From Peribolospora baueri (Eukaryota; Basidiomycota; Peribolosporomycetes; Peribolosporales; Peribolosporaceae), in the NCBI GenBank assembly GCA_029717555.1, contig JAMDHS010000023.1, positions 186,001 to 250,000 on the forward strand: a DNA stretch of 64,000 nt, in the 5' to 3' direction. The notes under the pieces were generated by a model. That model was given only the letters and a program-made list of their open reading frames with translations, searched no databases and had not been told where the DNA came from. How positions within the stretch are numbered: position 1 is the first letter of the stretch; every line of letters starts with the position of its first letter. A program made the position numbers and the translations under genes. This document shows positions 29,414 to 61,373 of the stretch, piece by piece.

Positions 29414-31402
29414 TCACTCATCCACCTTGACAGCGAGCACAGCAGAGTGTTGCCCGCCCGTAGCGCATCTCACCACCTTATACCCCTGCATCTGCTTGCT
29501 AGTCACCCTCGTCGGGGTCCTCACTTCTTCCTCGTCGCCTATGCCTAACTGGCACTGGTTGCCGTAACCCCAGCCGTAAAGGCAGCCGTCCTCGGCAACT
29601 GCAAGGTTGTGCCGCGTGCCGCTGGCCAGATGCACGATCTTCGTCGGCTTGCCGTCGGCTTCTGCCGGGAAAGGTATGTGCACCGGCTCAGGGATGTACT
29701 CGTCCGGAGGAGGACCCTTCGTCGGCGGAAGATCATCCGACGATACGACGCCCGCAAAGGCCCCGCCCATGCCATCCACCTCCATGGCATCGGCGCCACC
29801 GCTAGCCGACGCCTTTTCGCGCTTCTGGGCCTGTTTGGCCTCCCACTGCTTCATCTCCTCCTCCAACTCCTCCGCCCTGCGCTTCTCCCACTTTTCGCGC
29901 TCTTCCGCCACCTCGATCATCGCAGGATGGTCGTCGTCCAGACCGAGCTCGAAGCCGTCGCAGCGCCCGCAGCCCCAGACTTCGCCGTTGTCGAGCAAGA
30001 AGAGCGTGTGGTGCTCGCCGCCCGAGATCTGCTTCACTCGAGCTCCGCCATGCTTCTCCGGGCTTAGCGCTTCCACGCGCGCCGGCACAGGGATGATGTC
30101 CTGAGCGCCTCCATGCGACATCGGCACGCCCGTTTGATGGAGCGAGTTGAGGCCCCAGCTATAGACCTCTCCCTTCTTGTCGACCGCAAAAGAGTGGTAG
30201 CTGCCGGATCCCAACATCACGATATCTTTGAGAGCCAAGCGTTCCGGTGTCAGACCATTGATCTTGCGCCTCTCGATGATGCGCCTTCCGAGCTGGTTCT
30301 GCTGACCGTTGCCCCACGTGTAGACGTGGCCCGTCGTCGTCAGAGCCAGAACGTGATCGGCGCCACACGCGATCTGCACGAAGCTGTGCTTGTTGAGCTC
30401 GGGCAGGGAAACTGGAGAGAACTGCTTCTTCTCCGATCCAGTGCGGCCGTCGAAGCCAAGCAATCCGTCGTTGGACTAGGAGAAAAAAAGGGGCCGTCGC
30501 GCGCATTCAGCGACGGTGAACGTAGAGATGCCGAGACTTCTATCGCTCACCATACTCACCCTGAAGCTACCCCACACTCGCACCTGGCCCTGATCTCCGA
30601 TTGCCACGCTCACGCTGTCTCCAGCAGCAACCTGAACGGCACGGAAAAGCTCGACTTCGCCCTCCTTGCCGCCCTCAGGCGGCGGTCCGGGTAGCACGCC
30701 GCGACCGGCAGGGTCGAGGCCCTCGACTCGCATCGGCTCCGTCTCCAGCACTTCCGCCTCAATGGACGAATCTCGAGTGGTGGAGCGACCGAGAGAGGCG
30801 TTATCGTTGATACCCCACGACCATATCTGAAAGGCGTCGAGGCAACATGAATAAAAACACCGGGTAAACACGGGGACGCGGTCGAGTTGAAGGAAAGGGC
30901 GTCGGGAAAAGAAACCCGCGAATGGTTCACTCACCTGTCCATCCGAATCCACCGCCAATGTATGCATACCGCCAGCGGCGAGCGTCTCCAATCCGCCCTG
31001 GCCGGAAATGCCCTCGTCCACTTTGGATTTCCAGCCGATATGCAAACGCGGACGCTTGATCTCTCCCAGCTCTCCGGTGCCCAGTCCGTGTTGGCCCATA
31101 TCGCCATTTCCGAACACGAACAGGTATCGTGGGAGGATCACGGTCGCGTCCTTCGCGCTGCGGACGGCCGCTTCCGGGACCGGAAGCGCGTTAAGCCCTG
31201 GACGAGGTGCTCTCGAAAGGGCACTCGCCCGACCGCGACGAGACGGCGACGCGGACATCGTCCTCGTCTTTTTCCCTGCAGGCTCGGGCGTCTTGCTACG
31301 TCCGCGCCCGTTGGCGGTAGAGGCCCCCTTGCTGGGGCCAGCAACCGGCGACTTGCCCCGCTTCCGGGTCGACCTCTGAGCCATGTGCTCGTCCACGTCC
31401 AT
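29414..31402 (-). CDS. RCC1-type Ran guanine-nucleotide exchange factor
   Basis: Chromatin-bound exchange factor that loads Ran with GTP in the nucleus (yeast Prp20/Srm1, fission yeast Pim1). After a basic nuclear-localisation tail (QRSTRKRGKSPV, KKTRTMSASPSRRGR) come the propeller blades: YLFVFGNGDMGQHGLGTGEL, TLAAGGMHTLAVDSDGQ, IWSWGINDNASLGR, AAGDSVSVAIGDQGQVRVWG, IACGADHVLALTTTGHVYTW, MLGSGSYHSFAVDKKGEVYS, ISGGEHHTLFLLDNGEVWGC and LASGTRHNLAVAEDGCLYGW. It ends SAVLAVKVDE. Three or more exons are visible. A charged insert (EEREKWEKRRAEELEEEMKQ onward, about 29910-29780) interrupts one blade. I take MDVDEHMAQRS (ATG 31402) as start. An upstream exon MS at 31668-31673 could splice in frame to SATRARIN and would lengthen the N-terminus. 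It is divergent from COG5. Confidence 0.92.
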
Positions 31403-31704
31403 ATTGATTCGAGCCCGGGTAGCTGACTGCAAGGGAGAAACGGCAATGAGACACGCAGGATAGAGGGCGAAAAGGAGAGCGAGCAGCACCGAGGTGGAGC
31501 GTTGGTGGATGGTGGTCGTTGGTTAAACTCGCAAAAAGTTTTCGATGTTGACGTCCCGCCGTGTTTGGCCCGATCTTGCCTTCTTGCCGCAGTCGACGCG
31601 GCTACCTTGGCCCACGTGGACGACACCGACTTCGAAAGCCCCATCCCCCACTCTGACCTCACCTCACAGACATCTTCAAGCAGCAGCATTGAGACAGACG
31701 TCTG
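31403..31704. promoter_or_regulatory. Bidirectional promoter of RCC1 and COG5
   Basis: About 300 nt separate the chosen start codons of two divergent genes, so both promoters must lie here or inside leader introns. A good acceptor (ttgcag, complement of 31427-31432) suggests that RCC1 has an intron in its leader. If the upstream RCC1 exon is used, only about 30 nt separate the two ATGs. Confidence 0.55.
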
Positions 31705-54897: not shown

Positions 54898-57800
54898 TTA
54901 CAAGACCACCTTTCGGTTCTCCATCTCGAACTCTTCTCGCCTCCCGTTGCCGTCGTCGGTCGCCGTCGAGCTCGAAGCCGAATGAGACGGCGACGCGCGA
55001 GGTTGTGCCGGTTGAGCAAGCACGCTGGGGGGCTGAGAGTAGACTTCCCGAAGCTTTTGCTCCACCAGCTTCTTCACTCTGCGTGATGTGAACACACGCA
55101 CAGAAACAAAGTGGTGTCCGTCAGGCGACCGAGTGAAAGGGTTGCCATATGTGCGATGGTCGATCTAACTCACTCTTTGAAAACGGCCTTGCCCACCGTC
55201 ATCATAGGTCCAAGGAGAGAGAACTGGACCGCCACGTAGCTGTCGGGCGAAACAATGCGATTCGACAAGTGAGCAAGGACCAAAGTGAGCTATCCCTCTT
55301 TCGGACAGCTTTAAGGGGCACACTCACAAAGACGCGCCGAGAATGCAGAGCGAAGCGAACAAGAACGGGCTCGACAGCACCGCGATAGCCTCGTTCCAGC
55401 CGAGGACGACGAGCACGGCGTATATCCAATACGGTATCTGAGCGATGCTACTGACCGTGCTCCGCTTCGCCTCCACGTAGTACGCGTCAGCCTCCTTGCG
55501 GAAGCGGGAGATGATCTCGTTCTGCTTTGTCTCGGTGAAGATGGTCAATGTCGAGTCAAAGTCGAACCCTGGCTCGTCGTCCGTCGTATCATCGGCTTCG
55601 GAGGAGGGGAGGCTGATCATCAGGTTCGGGTCCGTAGGGGCAATCTTGGCGTAGATGGGAATGAGGGCTAGCGTCTGCGAGCAGAAGAGAAGGAGCCTGC
55701 TCAGTTACACCTCGACAGGGCTACTCTGCGCACTCAGTCGGTCTCTGAGATGTCCAACCACTCACTGCATCCCTCGCCGTCCGGAAAGCGCCGTCGATAT
55801 CATCATCAGGCTTCCAAACCCTCGGCACGCCATCCTTGTCATACCTAAACTTGTCCTCGAACAATGTGCGCAGTTTGATGAGCAAGACAGCATCAGCAGT
55901 CTGTTCATCCACCTTGGACCGCAAGGCCAGCCATGAGCGGCGGCGGAGAAGGGTGAGGGAAGATTGGTTTTCTTCCTCGGTACAGTTGAAGCCTGAGGAG
56001 ACCGGAAGAAAGAGAGTGGGGTCGCGTGTGAGCAAAGAAAGGGCAAATCCAGACGCCGCCATCGAACAACGAGCAGGAGCAAGTACAACAACGAGCTCAC
56101 TCGTCGCCTTCTTGAGGTAAGTCGTCTCGGCCTTGTCGAGAGCGTCATTGAAAGCTTTCAGGATCTTGTCCCACATGTCCACTGACGGCTTGTTGAGCGC
56201 CAGCTCCGTGGGTTCGGCCACCTGCTTCTTGATGTTCCTCTGAAAACGGAGGTATGAAGGAGCTCATGGTGAGCAGACCGAGCGACAAGACGTAGCCAGC
56301 CACACAGGGCACATGCGCCAAGTCACTCACCTCTATTTGAGTGACCATCTTCTTCGTCTCCTCTACCCGACTTTGGTCAGCGACCTGCGTGATGTCTTCC
56401 CGGAGTTGCGCAAACTCTTCGTCGAAAGACCAGTCCGTGTCCTTGAGGAGGATGGCTTCAAAACGGCACGATAAATAAACGCACAAGGTTGAGCTCAGGC
56501 GTCCAAGGGACACGCATGGGCTTATACGCGGTGGAAGGAAGAAAGGACTCACCATTGGCCGCCTCCTCGAAGGCACCCTCGGCCTTTTGCCTCTCCGACT
56601 TGACTACTTGGGCAAAATCGTACCCTTCTCCCTTGAGCTTGTCCAAGATGGAAGCCTTGAATTCCTTCAGCACGTCCTTGTGTAGATTCTTGAGCTGGCC
56701 GAGGAAGAAAGGAGAGAGTGTGGAATTGAGCTTGTCGAGGAGGTCAGAGCGCTTGCGGCGGTACACCTCGGCGTGGTAGCGAGAGGCGGCCGTGTCGAAC
56801 TTGACTGCGGAGGACGAGACACGAGAAGCGCTTGGATTGAGTGGGACGGCTTGATGGCGACGCTCTACATGCTCACGAAAGTAACTCACCGAGTGCAGCC
56901 TTCCTGTGCTTCTCCATGTCAGCTCCAAGCTCCGGGATGACCTTGCCAGCTTCGACTGGCCGACGGAAGCCCTTGACGTCGTTGCCGAACACGGCGAAAG
57001 CGCCGTTGGCGATCTCGTCGCAGCGGAACTGAGCGAGCAGTTCCTGTTGCGTGGGGAGGTCGAGATCCTTGTTCGTCATGACTTGTTGCTGGAAGACGAA
57101 AGGACGTGGAAAAGCGATCGAAGAGCCAGTGATCAGAGACGAGGTTGAAAGGAAGTGTGATGAGATGCAAAAGACAAGAAGACTAACCCAAATGCCCTCC
57201 ATGTAGTGCCCGAGACCGTCGGCAGGGATGCGCTTGTGGTAATTAGGACGGAAGACAAAGTTGGGGTCCTTGCGATCGATGAAACGACGTCGCAGGTTGA
57301 GGACCTCCTTCTCGAACTCCTGGGGTAGGAGGATCTTGTGCGGCAGGGTGGTGAACATCATATCGAAGTAGTCAGAGATCTTGCAGTCCTCAAGACCTTC
57401 CGGCTGGACCGTACGGGGACCGTCGCGAAGAAGAGGGTGTTTGGTCAGATCGACTCGCCAATAAGAGACATAACTTCCTCCATGTATACGGCTGAGAGAG
57501 ATGTTCACCTTGGAGAGCCCACTCCAGATCTTCTCCAAATCGGAGGCAATAGTATTGGACAGGTTAGAGAGCGGAGTGTGTCCGACGTGGTCGCGGATGA
57601 CGAAAAGAAGGAGCGTCTTGTCTTTCGATGCGCCACTGCGCAAGTCAGAAACCAGAACAAGTCAGAACAAGTCAGCATCCGTCGGGACAAGATGCGAACT
57701 GTGGTAATCCCGAAGAGCAACAGAGGCTAAACGGCGAAGAACACGCACTTCCTGCCCTTGCTCGTCTGGAACAGACTCAAGTTGACCTCAAACACCGTCT

Positions 57801-58809
57801 TGAGCAAGCTCATGTTGGCACCCTGGTAGAGACCAACTTGGTGCTCCCACATGTTCACGATGAGGACCTCGGCGGAGGCCATGGAGAAGAGGGCGGACTT
57901 GCGTTCAAAGTCCTATGAAGGAATCGATCAAGGCGCTTCGACGGTGAGCAGGAGCAGGCCCCAAAATTCTGTTTCCAAAGCACGTTCACAGCATCGCTCA
58001 CCTGGTCCTCTCCCCTTTCACGGCCGTCCGTACCCTCCACGTCCATGACGAGCACGTCCATATCCTGGCCCGGACACATCCATATGCCCTTCGTGGTTTG
58101 CCGCCTCTGAGACTCGTCCATCACATCGAACGTCGTCCCGAACAGACGGTTGAGAAGCGTACCTTTCAGGAGAATGGGGGGCCGGGGGGGGGGGAGGGGG
58201 GGGGGAAGGAGAAAGGGCAGAAGAGGCCTGTGTCGGCACTCTAGTCGAGTATGGCGACCCGCGGACGCCCGCAACCCCGTGTGTGTGTGCTTCATTGAAG
58301 CGTTCAAGAAATGAAGAAGCTTCACTCACTCTTACCGGTGGACTGAGATCCGAAGACGGCGACAACGTCGTAGGAGAAACCCTTATCGAGCAGGCCCCAC
58401 TGATCCATGTTTTTGTCCACTTCCGACCTGGAGGCAAGTGGAGGGGGAATGTGGGGCCATTGAGCTTTGTGCCGTCGAACTCGAATCGAGTCGGGGGTTC
58501 CTGATCGGCTCCCCCGCCGTGATGACAGAAATGATGGCCCTTCGCTCCCCTCTCCCGGGCCCCTGTCGCCTTCGTTATTGGAACTCACGAAAATCGCTGC
58601 TCCTCATCGATGATCTGAAGCCTCTCTTGTCCCTTTAGATTACCCTTCGCGATCCGCCGCCCTCCTTCTCCGTCCTCCCCATCACCGGGGCCGGTCCCGT
58701 TGGCATTCACGACCTTCTCTCCCGCCTCCACCAAGGATGCCTCGGCGGAGATAAGCGTGGGGTCGGAGGAAAGCAGGTTTGGGGTTGTGGTGCTGCTGCT
58801 GTTTTCCAT
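54898..58809 (-). CDS. SEY1: Sey1/RHD3 dynamin-like GTPase for ER membrane fusion
   Basis: Drives homotypic fusion of ER tubules. The start [20 protein letters not shown] is a polar cytosolic tail. The GTPase domain shows [21 protein letters not shown]-loop GSQSTGKS (split by an intron), [20 protein letters not shown] (G2), [14 protein letters not shown] (G3), [11 protein letters not shown] (G4, RD) and [12 protein letters not shown]. The helical bundle follows: [120 protein letters not shown] and [17 protein letters not shown]. Two C-terminal membrane segments form the hairpin ([14 protein letters not shown] and [14 protein letters not shown]). An amphipathic tail ([17 protein letters not shown]) ends at 54898-54900. 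About eleven exons join in frame; the gene is intact. Confidence 0.94.
58176..58205. repeat. G/C homopolymer run in a SEY1 intron
   Basis: Thirty bases of almost pure G (+ strand) interrupted by cc and one a. As read by SEY1 it is a C tract about 40 nt upstream of the acceptor before LLNRLFG, so it serves as an extreme polypyrimidine tract. Confidence 0.8.
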
Positions 58810-59502
58810 GCCAGGCTGGATGGGGGCGACGGGCGGAGAGGGATGATCAGAAGCCGAGCGGGGAGTAAGGGGCGAGGGTGGAAGAAGGGGTGGGGGCGGC
58901 GATGCGATGCGATGCGATATGATATGATGTGATGACGATTGTGCTGATCGACGGCGGACCACAGAGGATCTACGCGTGACACACACGTACGGTGGTAGGT
59001 GGGTGGACGAAGAGCAGGCGCCACTTGATAGGGTGACCGCCCGGTTTGTGCGGTAGCGCTCTGGACGCAAAGGGGTTGTCGAAGGAGGAGCGAGTAGGAC
59101 GGGTGCGGTGGCGGAGACGAGGGACGTTCCGATGGAGCTGAGGAACCTTGTGGGCCGTGAAAGAGAAGCAGGCGACTCCAGAGAAGCTGAAGAGGGAATC
59201 CCACGACGGCCTCGATCGGGGGCGCACAGAGCCCGAGAGCGGATTAGGGTTACGATAGTCGCCGGTCAAGTCTCGCACAGATGCCACATTCAGTGGACAT
59301 CCACGCGACGCAGCGCCATCTGCGAAGGGAACTGGGAAAGGACGACCGTTCCTTAATCGAATACCATATGTCGCGCGTCCCATGTCGTGTCTTCGTTTCC
59401 TCTTGCCAGAAAGACAATGCCCATCCAGAAGCTACAGTGCGCCGATTAGATTTACATTCAGGGAGGATCACCGGAACGAGGTGAAGAAGAAACCCAACGA
59501 GT
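58810..59502. other. SEY1 promoter side and downstream flank of the oxidoreductase locus
   Basis: No gene is seen. A short gatgcgatgcgatatgatat repeat lies near 58903-58930 in the SEY1 leader. Confidence 0.4.
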
Positions 59503-59715
59503 TCATGTCCTGAGGGACAAAGCTAACAATGGCATCATCCCCCTCGCTTCAAAATTTTCCCAGCCTACACCCTTAAACGACACGAACCTCTCCTCGGGAT
59601 CGTACTTGAGCTTGATCTCCTTCAACCGGGCATAGTGGTCGGCGAAGGACGAGTCAGAGCTGGGATGCAAATATCCTAACCCCACCTGTCCTCGCTTTTT
59701 CGCTGACCCCATCTC
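59503..59715 (-). pseudogene. C-terminal fragment of a berberine-bridge-type FAD oxidoreductase
   Basis: On the - strand the residues SFADHYARLKEIKLKYDPEE followed by RFVSFKGVGWENF match the BBE C-terminal domain, which closes over the FAD-binding fold. The block is followed by EARGMMPLLALSLRT and a stop at 59503-59505. The catalytic-side substrate domain that should precede it on this strand is not here; it lies on the opposite strand immediately to the right. See the middle and N-terminal pieces. Confidence 0.8.
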
Positions 59716-60934
59716 CTCCCGGCCGTAATCGTTAGCTCTGGCGTTCAGTGGAACGAGGTGTATGCAGCCGCCGCGGAGCGCAACCTGACTGTCGTCGGAG
59801 GCGTCTCTGCCGGCGGCAGCGTCGGCACTGGCGGCGGGTGTATTCTCGGCGCCGGGTATTCTATCTTGTCGCCGACGTATGGGCTAGGTGCGTTCAAGAT
59901 GCATACTTGGTTTCTTTCGCAAGCTGAAAGGGGCTTCAGCGCCATGCTCATTTGTGTGGACGGTCAGGCGTGGCGTGGACAACGTGCTCCAATTCGACGT
60001 CGTCTTGGCGAGCGGCGAGATCGTGTCCGCCTCGTCCAGTAGCAACTCGGACCTCTTCTGGGCGTTGCGCGGAGGGGGCGGCGGTACCTTTGGCGTCGTG
60101 ACCAGCGTCACGTACCGCGTCCGCCCGGCGACGCCGGCTCTGGGCGCTCTCTGCGCTGTGAACGTGACGAGCGCCGAGGGTTACGAGGAGCTCCTGACAC
60201 GGCTCATCCGCGGCCTGCCGAACGCGACGGATGCGGGCTGGGGCATGTACGTCGTGATGTCCGGCGAGATCCCCAGCAGCTTCGCAACCTGGCTGTGAAC
60301 GCCTTGCATCCCAACTCGACCGACATGGCGCACGCCACGACCGTTCAGCCGCTCCTGGCCGAACTGGCATCGGTTCCCGGGGCGACAGCGCAAAGCTTCA
60401 CGGTGCCTTACCAAGGTGGCTTCTACGATTGGTATAAGGAGTACGAAACAAACGGGACTCAGGTCGGCGCCCCGGACATCCTCGGGTCGAGGCTCATGAG
60501 CCGTGACGCCCACTTGAACAAGGCCCGAGACGCCGCCAAGATCTGGGCGCGGACTCCTGGCCTCGGCATCAAGTGAGTACTGTTCGGATGTCGTAGCGTC
60601 CGCAGTTCCATCTCCATGAAGCATGGAACGGCTGGGTCGCTCATCGCTCATCGATTACATGCCTCGCCCTTCACTCGCTTCTGTCCGCCATCGTCGTCCC
60701 GTCCCACCCAGCGTCATCGCCGGCGGTGCAGTCAATCGGCCCGACGAGGCCTCTACCGGCCTCAACCCGGCGTGGCGCCGCGCCATCTCCAGCGTGTCCA
60801 TCTCAGAATCGTGGGCCGATAACGCGACGGTGGCGGAGCAAGACGCGGTGCAGGCGATGGTGACGTCGCAGACGATGGCGTTGGACTCCTCGAGCCCGGC
60901 GGAGGGGCGTACGTGAACGAGGCGGACCCGGGAG
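59716..60934 (+). pseudogene. Inverted middle of the same FAD oxidoreductase gene
   Basis: On the + strand this segment encodes the FAD-binding and substrate domains: VSSGVQWNEVYAAAAERNLT, VVGGVSAGGSVGTGGGCILG with [13 protein letters not shown] (the Cys-containing FAD-attachment loop), then [20 protein letters not shown] and [20 protein letters not shown]. The substrate domain continues with [56 protein letters not shown] and IAGGAVNRPDEASTGLNPAW, up to YVNEADPG near 60930. It has no signal peptide or start of its own, and no C-terminal KYDPEERF block. Single-base frame breaks are seen near 60280 (GEIPSS to RNLAVN) and near 60904 (SSPAEG to YVNEADP). About 60 residues expected before VQWNEVY, including the His-containing FAD loop, are absent. 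Confidence 0.82.
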
Positions 60935-61373
60935 AAACTTGAAAGCGGTCACAATGTCCTGCACCCGATGGACCTCGACGGCGAGCGACGGCACGCTGCC
61001 CTGGTCGCAGGTGGCAGTTCTGGGGCCTGCAATCTCGCAGTCCTCCTTCCTCCGTGCCGTTGGCCGCGATCAGAGTCTCCCAGTTGGTGTTCTGCATCGC
61101 GCCCGGCTGGTCGGCGCGCCATGTGGCGTTCGTCCACTGCGTCTGCGCCTGCGTGCACGCCGAGGCGGAGTAATGCGGGTCGTGGCAGGGAAAGGCGGGC
61201 GGGCGCGGACGGAGGAGCGGGGTGGAGAGGGAGGCGGAGAAGGCGTCCAGCTCGGCTTGCGAGGGCAAACAAGGCTGGCCGGGCCGGCAGAAGCAGCGCT
61301 GCCGCTGTTGTGGTCCGCTCGCGCCTGCCCGGAGGAAGGGGAGGAGGATAGCGAGGGGAAAGAGGATGTGCAT
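60935..61373 (-). pseudogene. N-terminal fragment of the same FAD oxidoreductase gene
   Basis: On the - strand from ATG 61373 there is a signal peptide (MHILFPLAILLPFLRAGASG) and the secreted BBE N-terminus. This has CFCRPGQPCLPSQAELDAFS, then FPCHDPHYSASACTQAQTQW, WRADQPGAMQNTNWETLI and DCEIAGPRTATCDQGSVPSL with AVEVHRVQDIVTAFKF. The last block is a different frame from NWETLI; no GT donor lies between, so it is a single-base break (about 61043). After TAFKF the gene stops making sense on this strand, because the continuation is on the + strand starting at the far end of the inverted block (59716). Secreted BBE enzymes oxidise carbohydrates or alkaloid-like substrates with doubly linked FAD. 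Confidence 0.82.

What the first reader, a model, noticed from the sequence alone, without database searches (positions are those of the whole stretch)
59503..61373. A single FAD oxidoreductase gene with its middle 1.2 kb inverted
The N-terminus (signal peptide to TAFKF) and the C-terminus (KYDPEERFVSFKGVGWENF) lie on the - strand, while the FAD and substrate domains between them lie on the + strand, in the place where they should be. Turning the block back puts the pieces in the right order, and at the left junction the frame runs on (AFKF, then LPAVIVSSGVQWNEV). The other ends also meet sensibly (YVNEADPG next to the HYARLKEIK block via a possible short intron). This is a balanced inversion inside one gene. 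It may be a dead allele, a segregating or reversible inversion, or an assembly artefact.
Basis: partly seen in the sequence, partly recalled or inferred. Interest (0 to 1): 0.85.

Follow-up and report, generated by a model that had tools for sequence, protein, structure and literature searches.

The report
Dead oxidase gene with inverted middle
A fungal gene for a secreted FAD enzyme lies in three pieces with its middle flipped; it also lacks the part that should hold the FAD and has other frame breaks, so it is most likely an ordinary dead gene and not a switch.

Summary
Window 59503-61373 holds one gene of the fungal VAO/BBE oxidase family (nearest solved relatives MtVAO615 and MtVAO713). 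Its N- and C-terminal parts lie on the - strand, and about 1.2 kb between them lies on the + strand. In 27 of 27 relatives that match all four test pieces, the pieces follow the family's order.

Where the frame seems to run on (TAFKF, then LPAVIV), relatives have about 55 further residues (55-57 in 27 of 34, counted), with the conserved KNTGHD..GRS stretch that by family knowledge holds the FAD-binding histidine. My searches did not find that stretch in the window, in 27 fetched loci or in the assembly. The pieces also change frame at four other places, and 8 of 73 otherwise invariant residues are replaced.

Best reading: a single-copy pseudogene, broken by a deletion plus inversion and small indels. 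A reversible switch is unlikely: no exact inverted repeat longer than 7 bp lies within 100 bp of both breakpoints, and turning the block back leaves the gene broken. Misassembly cannot be excluded without reads. Interest is low.

The parts
61047..61373 (-). Piece A1: start codon, likely signal peptide and N-terminal part of the oxidase
   Evidence: tblastn with 31 of 38 homologs, median homolog residues 10-107; PDB match to MtVAO713, E 1.5e-4, and MtVAO615, E 0.17; start codon checked. Signal peptide: by eye and from the family, not predicted
60935..61045 (-). Piece A2: ...CDQGSVPSLAVEVHRVQDIVTAFKF, in another frame than A1; its last codon TTT (60937-60935) meets block B
   Evidence: tblastn with 35 of 38 homologs, median residues 117-144; no PDB match of this family on its own
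61038..61050 (-). Frame change inside A, in a purine-rich run
   Evidence: A1 and A2 lie in different frames of the same strand
59716..60936 (+). Inverted block B (about 1.2 kb): rest of the FAD domain and the substrate domain, up to YVNEADPGE
   Evidence: tblastn with 32 to 38 of 38 homologs per sub-piece; PDB matches of two sub-pieces to MtVAO615, E 4e-12 and 0.0013; two other sub-pieces have no PDB match
59888..59967 (+). Likely intron of B, 80 nt, GTGCGT...GGTCAG
   Evidence: motifs read; flanked by pieces that meet at GLG/GVDN in homologs; not shown by RNA
59968..59977 (+). Tandem GCGTG GCGTG directly behind the acceptor; the frame changes here
   Evidence: sequence; exon frames differ. 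An unusual splice site is not excluded
60263..60285 (+). Frame change inside B
   Evidence: pieces on either side lie in different frames with no room for an intron
60573..60711 (+). Likely intron of B, 139 nt, GTGAGT...ACCCAG
   Evidence: motifs read; flanked by homologous pieces
60881..60888 (+). Frame change near the end of B, before LEPGGGAYVNEA
   Evidence: pieces on either side lie in different frames
60928..60937 (.). Right junction: coding of B (to 60936) and of A (from 60935) meet directly; CCGGGAG at 60928-60934
59659..59722 (.). Left junction: about 57 bp of unassigned sequence between C and B, with CTCCCGG at 59716-59722
   Evidence: The 7-bp inverted match to the right junction is as good in 595 of 5000 random pairs from the window
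59503..59658 (-). Piece C: SDSSFADHYARLKEIKLKYDPEERFVSFKGVGWENFE, end of the BBE domain, then a tail without the family's last cysteine, and a stop
   Evidence: Pfam BBE PF08031, 20.8 bits against a cut-off of 20.6; MtVAO615 residues 528-564, E 0.0074; 37 of 38 homologs

Best explanation
This is a unitary (single-copy) pseudogene of a secreted VAO/BBE-type flavoprotein oxidase. A double-strand-break type rearrangement inverted about 1.2 kb inside the coding region and, in the same or an earlier step, removed the coding sequence for about 55 residues, including the FAD-attachment segment, at one breakpoint and about 3 residues at the other. Small indels broke the frame at four more places. Shown: the order and strand of the pieces, the missing segment, the frame changes, the absence of a second copy in the assembly. 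Inferred: that inversion and deletion were one event, the repair mechanism, and that no product is made.
For: Pieces A, B and C cover complementary, nearly non-overlapping parts of one protein, in order, in 27 of 27 homologs. About 55 residues are absent at the A-B junction and about 3 at the B-C junction. 14 of the 15 invariant family columns that no piece covers lie in the missing segment, with the KNTGHD histidine. Four frame changes besides the junctions. 8 of 73 covered invariant residues are replaced, while 21 of 22 other homologs not used to define them lose 5 or fewer, 10 or less in all 22. Only one copy of the region in the assembly. Two likely introns with GT...AG on the + strand inside B show that the block was coded on that strand and is not a processed copy. 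Neighbour control: an RCC1-type gene at 29426-31408 aligns in one chain and one frame with 4 of 4 homologs tried, and another FAD-family gene of this genome is open over 559 aa.
Against: No reads, so a misassembly is not excluded. Small indels could be sequencing errors. The piece-by-piece affinity test gave no support that A, B and C stem from the same gene: none of 10 rank correlations of scores across homologs reached p 0.05. The reference homologs are mostly Agaricomycetes and the window is not from that class, so the 8 replaced residues may partly be lineage divergence. No in-frame stop was seen inside the pieces themselves, so the decay is young or slight. Three of seven pieces searched had no family match in the PDB by sequence.
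Confidence: 0.78

Rival explanations
1. Assembly artefact: the living gene is intact, and the assembler inverted a block and dropped a piece, with local sequence errors.
For: No reads could be examined; the gene has five kinds of damage in 1.9 kb while the RCC1 control has none, which a locally bad patch would also give. Inverted joins with a deletion are known artefacts of some amplification methods (recalled).
Against: No N in the window; the missing segment is nowhere in the assembly; two separate junctions and four indels would have to be wrong; no second copy or alternative contig exists to misjoin with; in three other FAD-family loci with more than one matching piece (C108, C52, C118) the pieces lie on one strand.
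Confidence: 0.15
2. Reversible or segregating inversion that switches the gene on and off.
For: The block can be turned back to give the right order, and 7-bp inverted matches (CTCCCGG/CCGGGAG) sit at the breakpoints.
Against: No longer exact inverted match within 100 bp of both breakpoints; matches as long are found in 595 of 5000 random pairs; turned back, the gene still lacks about 55 residues and has four frame changes. No recombinase search was made.
Confidence: 0.02
3. Two genes: remnants of two paralogs in opposite orientation, one giving A and C and the other B.
For: Score patterns of the pieces across homologs do not correlate, so common origin is not shown that way.
Against: The pieces do not repeat each other: A ends near residue 144, B runs from about 200 to 529 and C begins near 533; remnants of two genes would be expected to overlap somewhere.
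Confidence: 0.05

Closest known systems
MtVAO615 and MtVAO713, VAO-type flavoprotein oxidases of Myceliophthora thermophila (PDB 6f72, 6f74; PMC6017366, passages seen)
   Same: Closest solved relatives of the pieces that match at all; secreted fungal VAO/BBE-type oxidases
   Different: Those are whole enzymes with covalently bound FAD; here the segment with the FAD histidine is missing and the order of the DNA pieces is broken
Uncharacterised FAD-binding PCMH/BBE proteins of Agaricomycetes (P0004, P0006, P0059 and others)
   Same: About 45-60% identity over the best-conserved piece; same order of segments
   Different: Continuous proteins of about 570-590 aa with the KNTGHD segment
Unitary pseudogenes (PMC2864566, listing and start of abstract seen)
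   Same: Broken gene without an intact counterpart in the genome
   Different: Here one of the lesions is an inversion inside the gene
Processed pseudogenes with internal inversion (PMC3996531, listing and start of abstract seen; twin priming recalled)
   Same: Inversion inside a gene copy
   Different: Here two likely introns are kept, so it is not a processed copy

Membership tests
Fungal VAO/BBE-type oxidase (MtVAO615-like) | Sequence homology along the whole protein | tested here: met
   Eight pieces match; 27 of 27 homologs collinear. Pfam alone: BBE just over its cut-off, FAD_binding_4 below its cut-off
Fungal VAO/BBE-type oxidase (MtVAO615-like) | KNTGHD..GRS segment with the FAD-binding histidine (role of this histidine recalled, not taken from a call) | tested here: not met
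   The segment of about 55 residues is absent from the locus and was not found elsewhere (one search returned no candidates and its own text says that this shows nothing)
Fungal VAO/BBE-type oxidase (MtVAO615-like) | One open, collinear reading frame after splicing | tested here: not met
   Strand changes at two junctions and four frame changes
Unitary pseudogene | Disabling lesions and no intact copy in the genome | tested here: met
   Lesions as above; DNA search of the own assembly finds one place only; protein search finds only other FAD-family genes at lower scores
Unitary pseudogene | No functional transcript or protein | not testable with these tools
   No RNA or protein data
Invertible (phase-variable) element | Inverted repeats at both ends of the block | tested here: not met
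   Longest exact inverted match 7 bp within 100 bp of the breakpoints, 8 bp within 200, 11 bp within 400; 7 bp is common by chance
Invertible (phase-variable) element | Both orientations present | not testable with these tools
   One orientation in the assembly; no reads

The most novel reading that the evidence does not exclude
The block is a segregating or reversible inversion in the living population, and the present allele is one of two forms of the locus.
Probability: 0.03. Interest if true: 0.6.

Novelty: new member of a known kind. Interest (0 to 1): 0.2.

Why it matters
It is a clean example of a gene broken by a small inversion with loss at the breakpoints, and a warning that gene finders will call two or three false genes here. 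If reads showed both orientations, it would be a rare case of an invertible nuclear gene segment in a fungus, but nothing here points to that.

Tried and rejected
Displaced missing exon: looked for the 55-residue segment with 16 homologs in the window and 27 fetched loci, with a whole homolog in the own assembly, with a 63-aa stretch of P0021 (no candidates, uninformative by its own text) and with the KNTGHD codon pattern (no exact match among the listed places; seven with one mismatch, six of them fetched and without the rest of the segment). The best hit (25 bits) is the corresponding segment of a different FAD-family gene on C167.

Switch by inverted repeats; rejected. One 17-nt, 88% inverted pair (60022-60038 with 60914-60930) touches the right junction, but its other arm lies inside the block, so it would not invert this block.

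Same-gene test by score correlation across homologs: no signal.

Identifying the fungus: by one RCC1-type gene only; the closest named hits are Ceraceosorus guamensis 59%, Sympodiomycopsis kandeliae 58%, Tilletiaria anomala 54%, so probably Ustilaginomycotina (placement recalled). The species is not known. Some unnamed metagenome hits score higher.

Telomere-near position: the contig ends about 13 kb to the right, without TTAGGG repeats in the last 1.7 kb; rejected.

Literature. 'intragenic inversion' with 'pseudogene' and 'fungal' gave one paper (on Triticeae, listing only).

Full report
What is there. The window is a stretch of contig C94 (186001-250000 of 260177 bases) of a 22.1-Mb assembly in 178 contigs. 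It is eukaryotic: genes are split by likely introns, and its RCC1-type gene is closest, among named hits, to Ceraceosorus, Sympodiomycopsis and Tilletiaria. At 59503-61373 lie pieces of one VAO/BBE-type flavoprotein oxidase. Pfam sees little in the single frames: BBE in piece C (20.8 bits, cut-off 20.6) and FAD_binding_4 in piece B1 below its cut-off, from profile position 66 on; seven of nine frames give nothing. Against solved structures, four of seven pieces find MtVAO615 or MtVAO713 and three find no member of the family.

Anatomy. A search with the best-conserved part found 4764 proteins at E 0.001 or better among 5397 candidates, 120 listed. I used the 38 of these with 480-640 residues. 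tblastn places A on the - strand (61349-60935, homolog residues about 10-144), B on the + strand (59722-60936, about 200-529) and C on the - strand (59646-59548, about 535-570), in medians; 31 to 38 of 38 homologs match each sub-piece, and 27 of 27 that match all four tested pieces have them in order.

What is missing. Between the end of A and the start of B relatives have 55-57 residues in 27 of 34 homologs; the other values are 45 (three), 46, 53, 60 and -199 (a mispaired match). Between B and C it is 3 residues in 26 of 33; the others are 2, -15 and 64 (five) (counted). The first gap holds KNTGHD..GRS...WTH, invariant in the 16 homologs aligned. The histidine of this motif is, by family knowledge (recalled), the one that binds FAD; PMC6017366 (passages seen) says that MtVAO615 has a bicovalently and MtVAO713 a monocovalent histidyl-bound FAD. 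The segment was not found in the window, in 27 fetched loci or in the assembly.

Other damage. A changes frame near 61047. B changes frame directly behind the acceptor of its first likely intron, at a tandem GCGTG GCGTG (59968-59977); an odd splice site is not excluded. It changes again between 60263 and 60285 and between 60881 and 60888. Of 88 columns invariant among the 16 aligned homologs, 73 are covered by the pieces; 65 are kept and 8 replaced. Among 22 further homologs the number of replacements was 0 to 5 in 21 and 10 in one, six of the 22 being incomplete over these columns. Those homologs are mostly Agaricomycetes, so the comparison is tilted against the window's gene. 15 invariant columns are uncovered: 14 in the missing segment and the last cysteine. 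No in-frame stop was seen inside the pieces.

Controls. The RCC1-type gene at 29426-31408 aligns in one chain and one frame with 4 of 4 homologs tried, with inserts that look like introns. A second FAD-family gene of the genome is open over 559 aa. The region occurs once in the assembly. In three other FAD-family loci with several matching pieces, the pieces lie on one strand (C108, C52, C118). This speaks for real, local damage, not for a generally bad assembly; it cannot exclude a local error.

Mechanism. At the right junction the coding of A and B meet without a spacer (60934-60937). At the left junction about 57 bp of unassigned sequence lie between C and B; they may be the end of an intron of C, the end of an intron before B, or filler. 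A 7-bp inverted match (CTCCCGG, 59716-59722; CCGGGAG, 60928-60934) sits at the breakpoints, but 595 of 5000 random pairs from the window do as well. The longest exact inverted match is 7 bp within 100 bp of the breakpoints, 8 within 200 and 11 within 400. This fits end joining of breaks with loss at the ends, or a deletion followed by an inversion, and gives no hold for a site-specific switch. The two likely introns kept inside B exclude a processed copy.

Verdict. A dead, single-copy oxidase gene, broken by an inversion with deletion and by small indels. Rivals are a misassembly (0.15), remnants of two genes (0.05) and a switch (0.02). Result against my reading: the scores of the pieces across homologs do not correlate (none of 10 tests under p 0.05), so common origin rests on complementarity and order.

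Noticed in passing
window 55000-58820 (- strand): SEY1/RHD3-type GTPase gene next to the dead oxidase gene (PF05879 in the frame 56876-57661); its conserved place may help to find the same locus in relatives.
   Followed up: no
G000: C167, C91, C144, C108, C52, C178, C118, C116, C80: Other FAD_binding_4 or related matches in the same assembly. All 13 matches lie on the - strand of their contigs, which looks like chance.
   Followed up: partly
window 58910-58935: Short run of GATGC/GATAT repeats in front of SEY1.
   Followed up: no
window 60022-60038 and 60914-60930: 17-nt inverted pair, 88% complementary, one arm ending at the right junction and the other inside the block.
   Followed up: partly
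G000:C94:260160-260177 (L028): The contig ends in a run of G, without telomere repeats.
   Followed up: no
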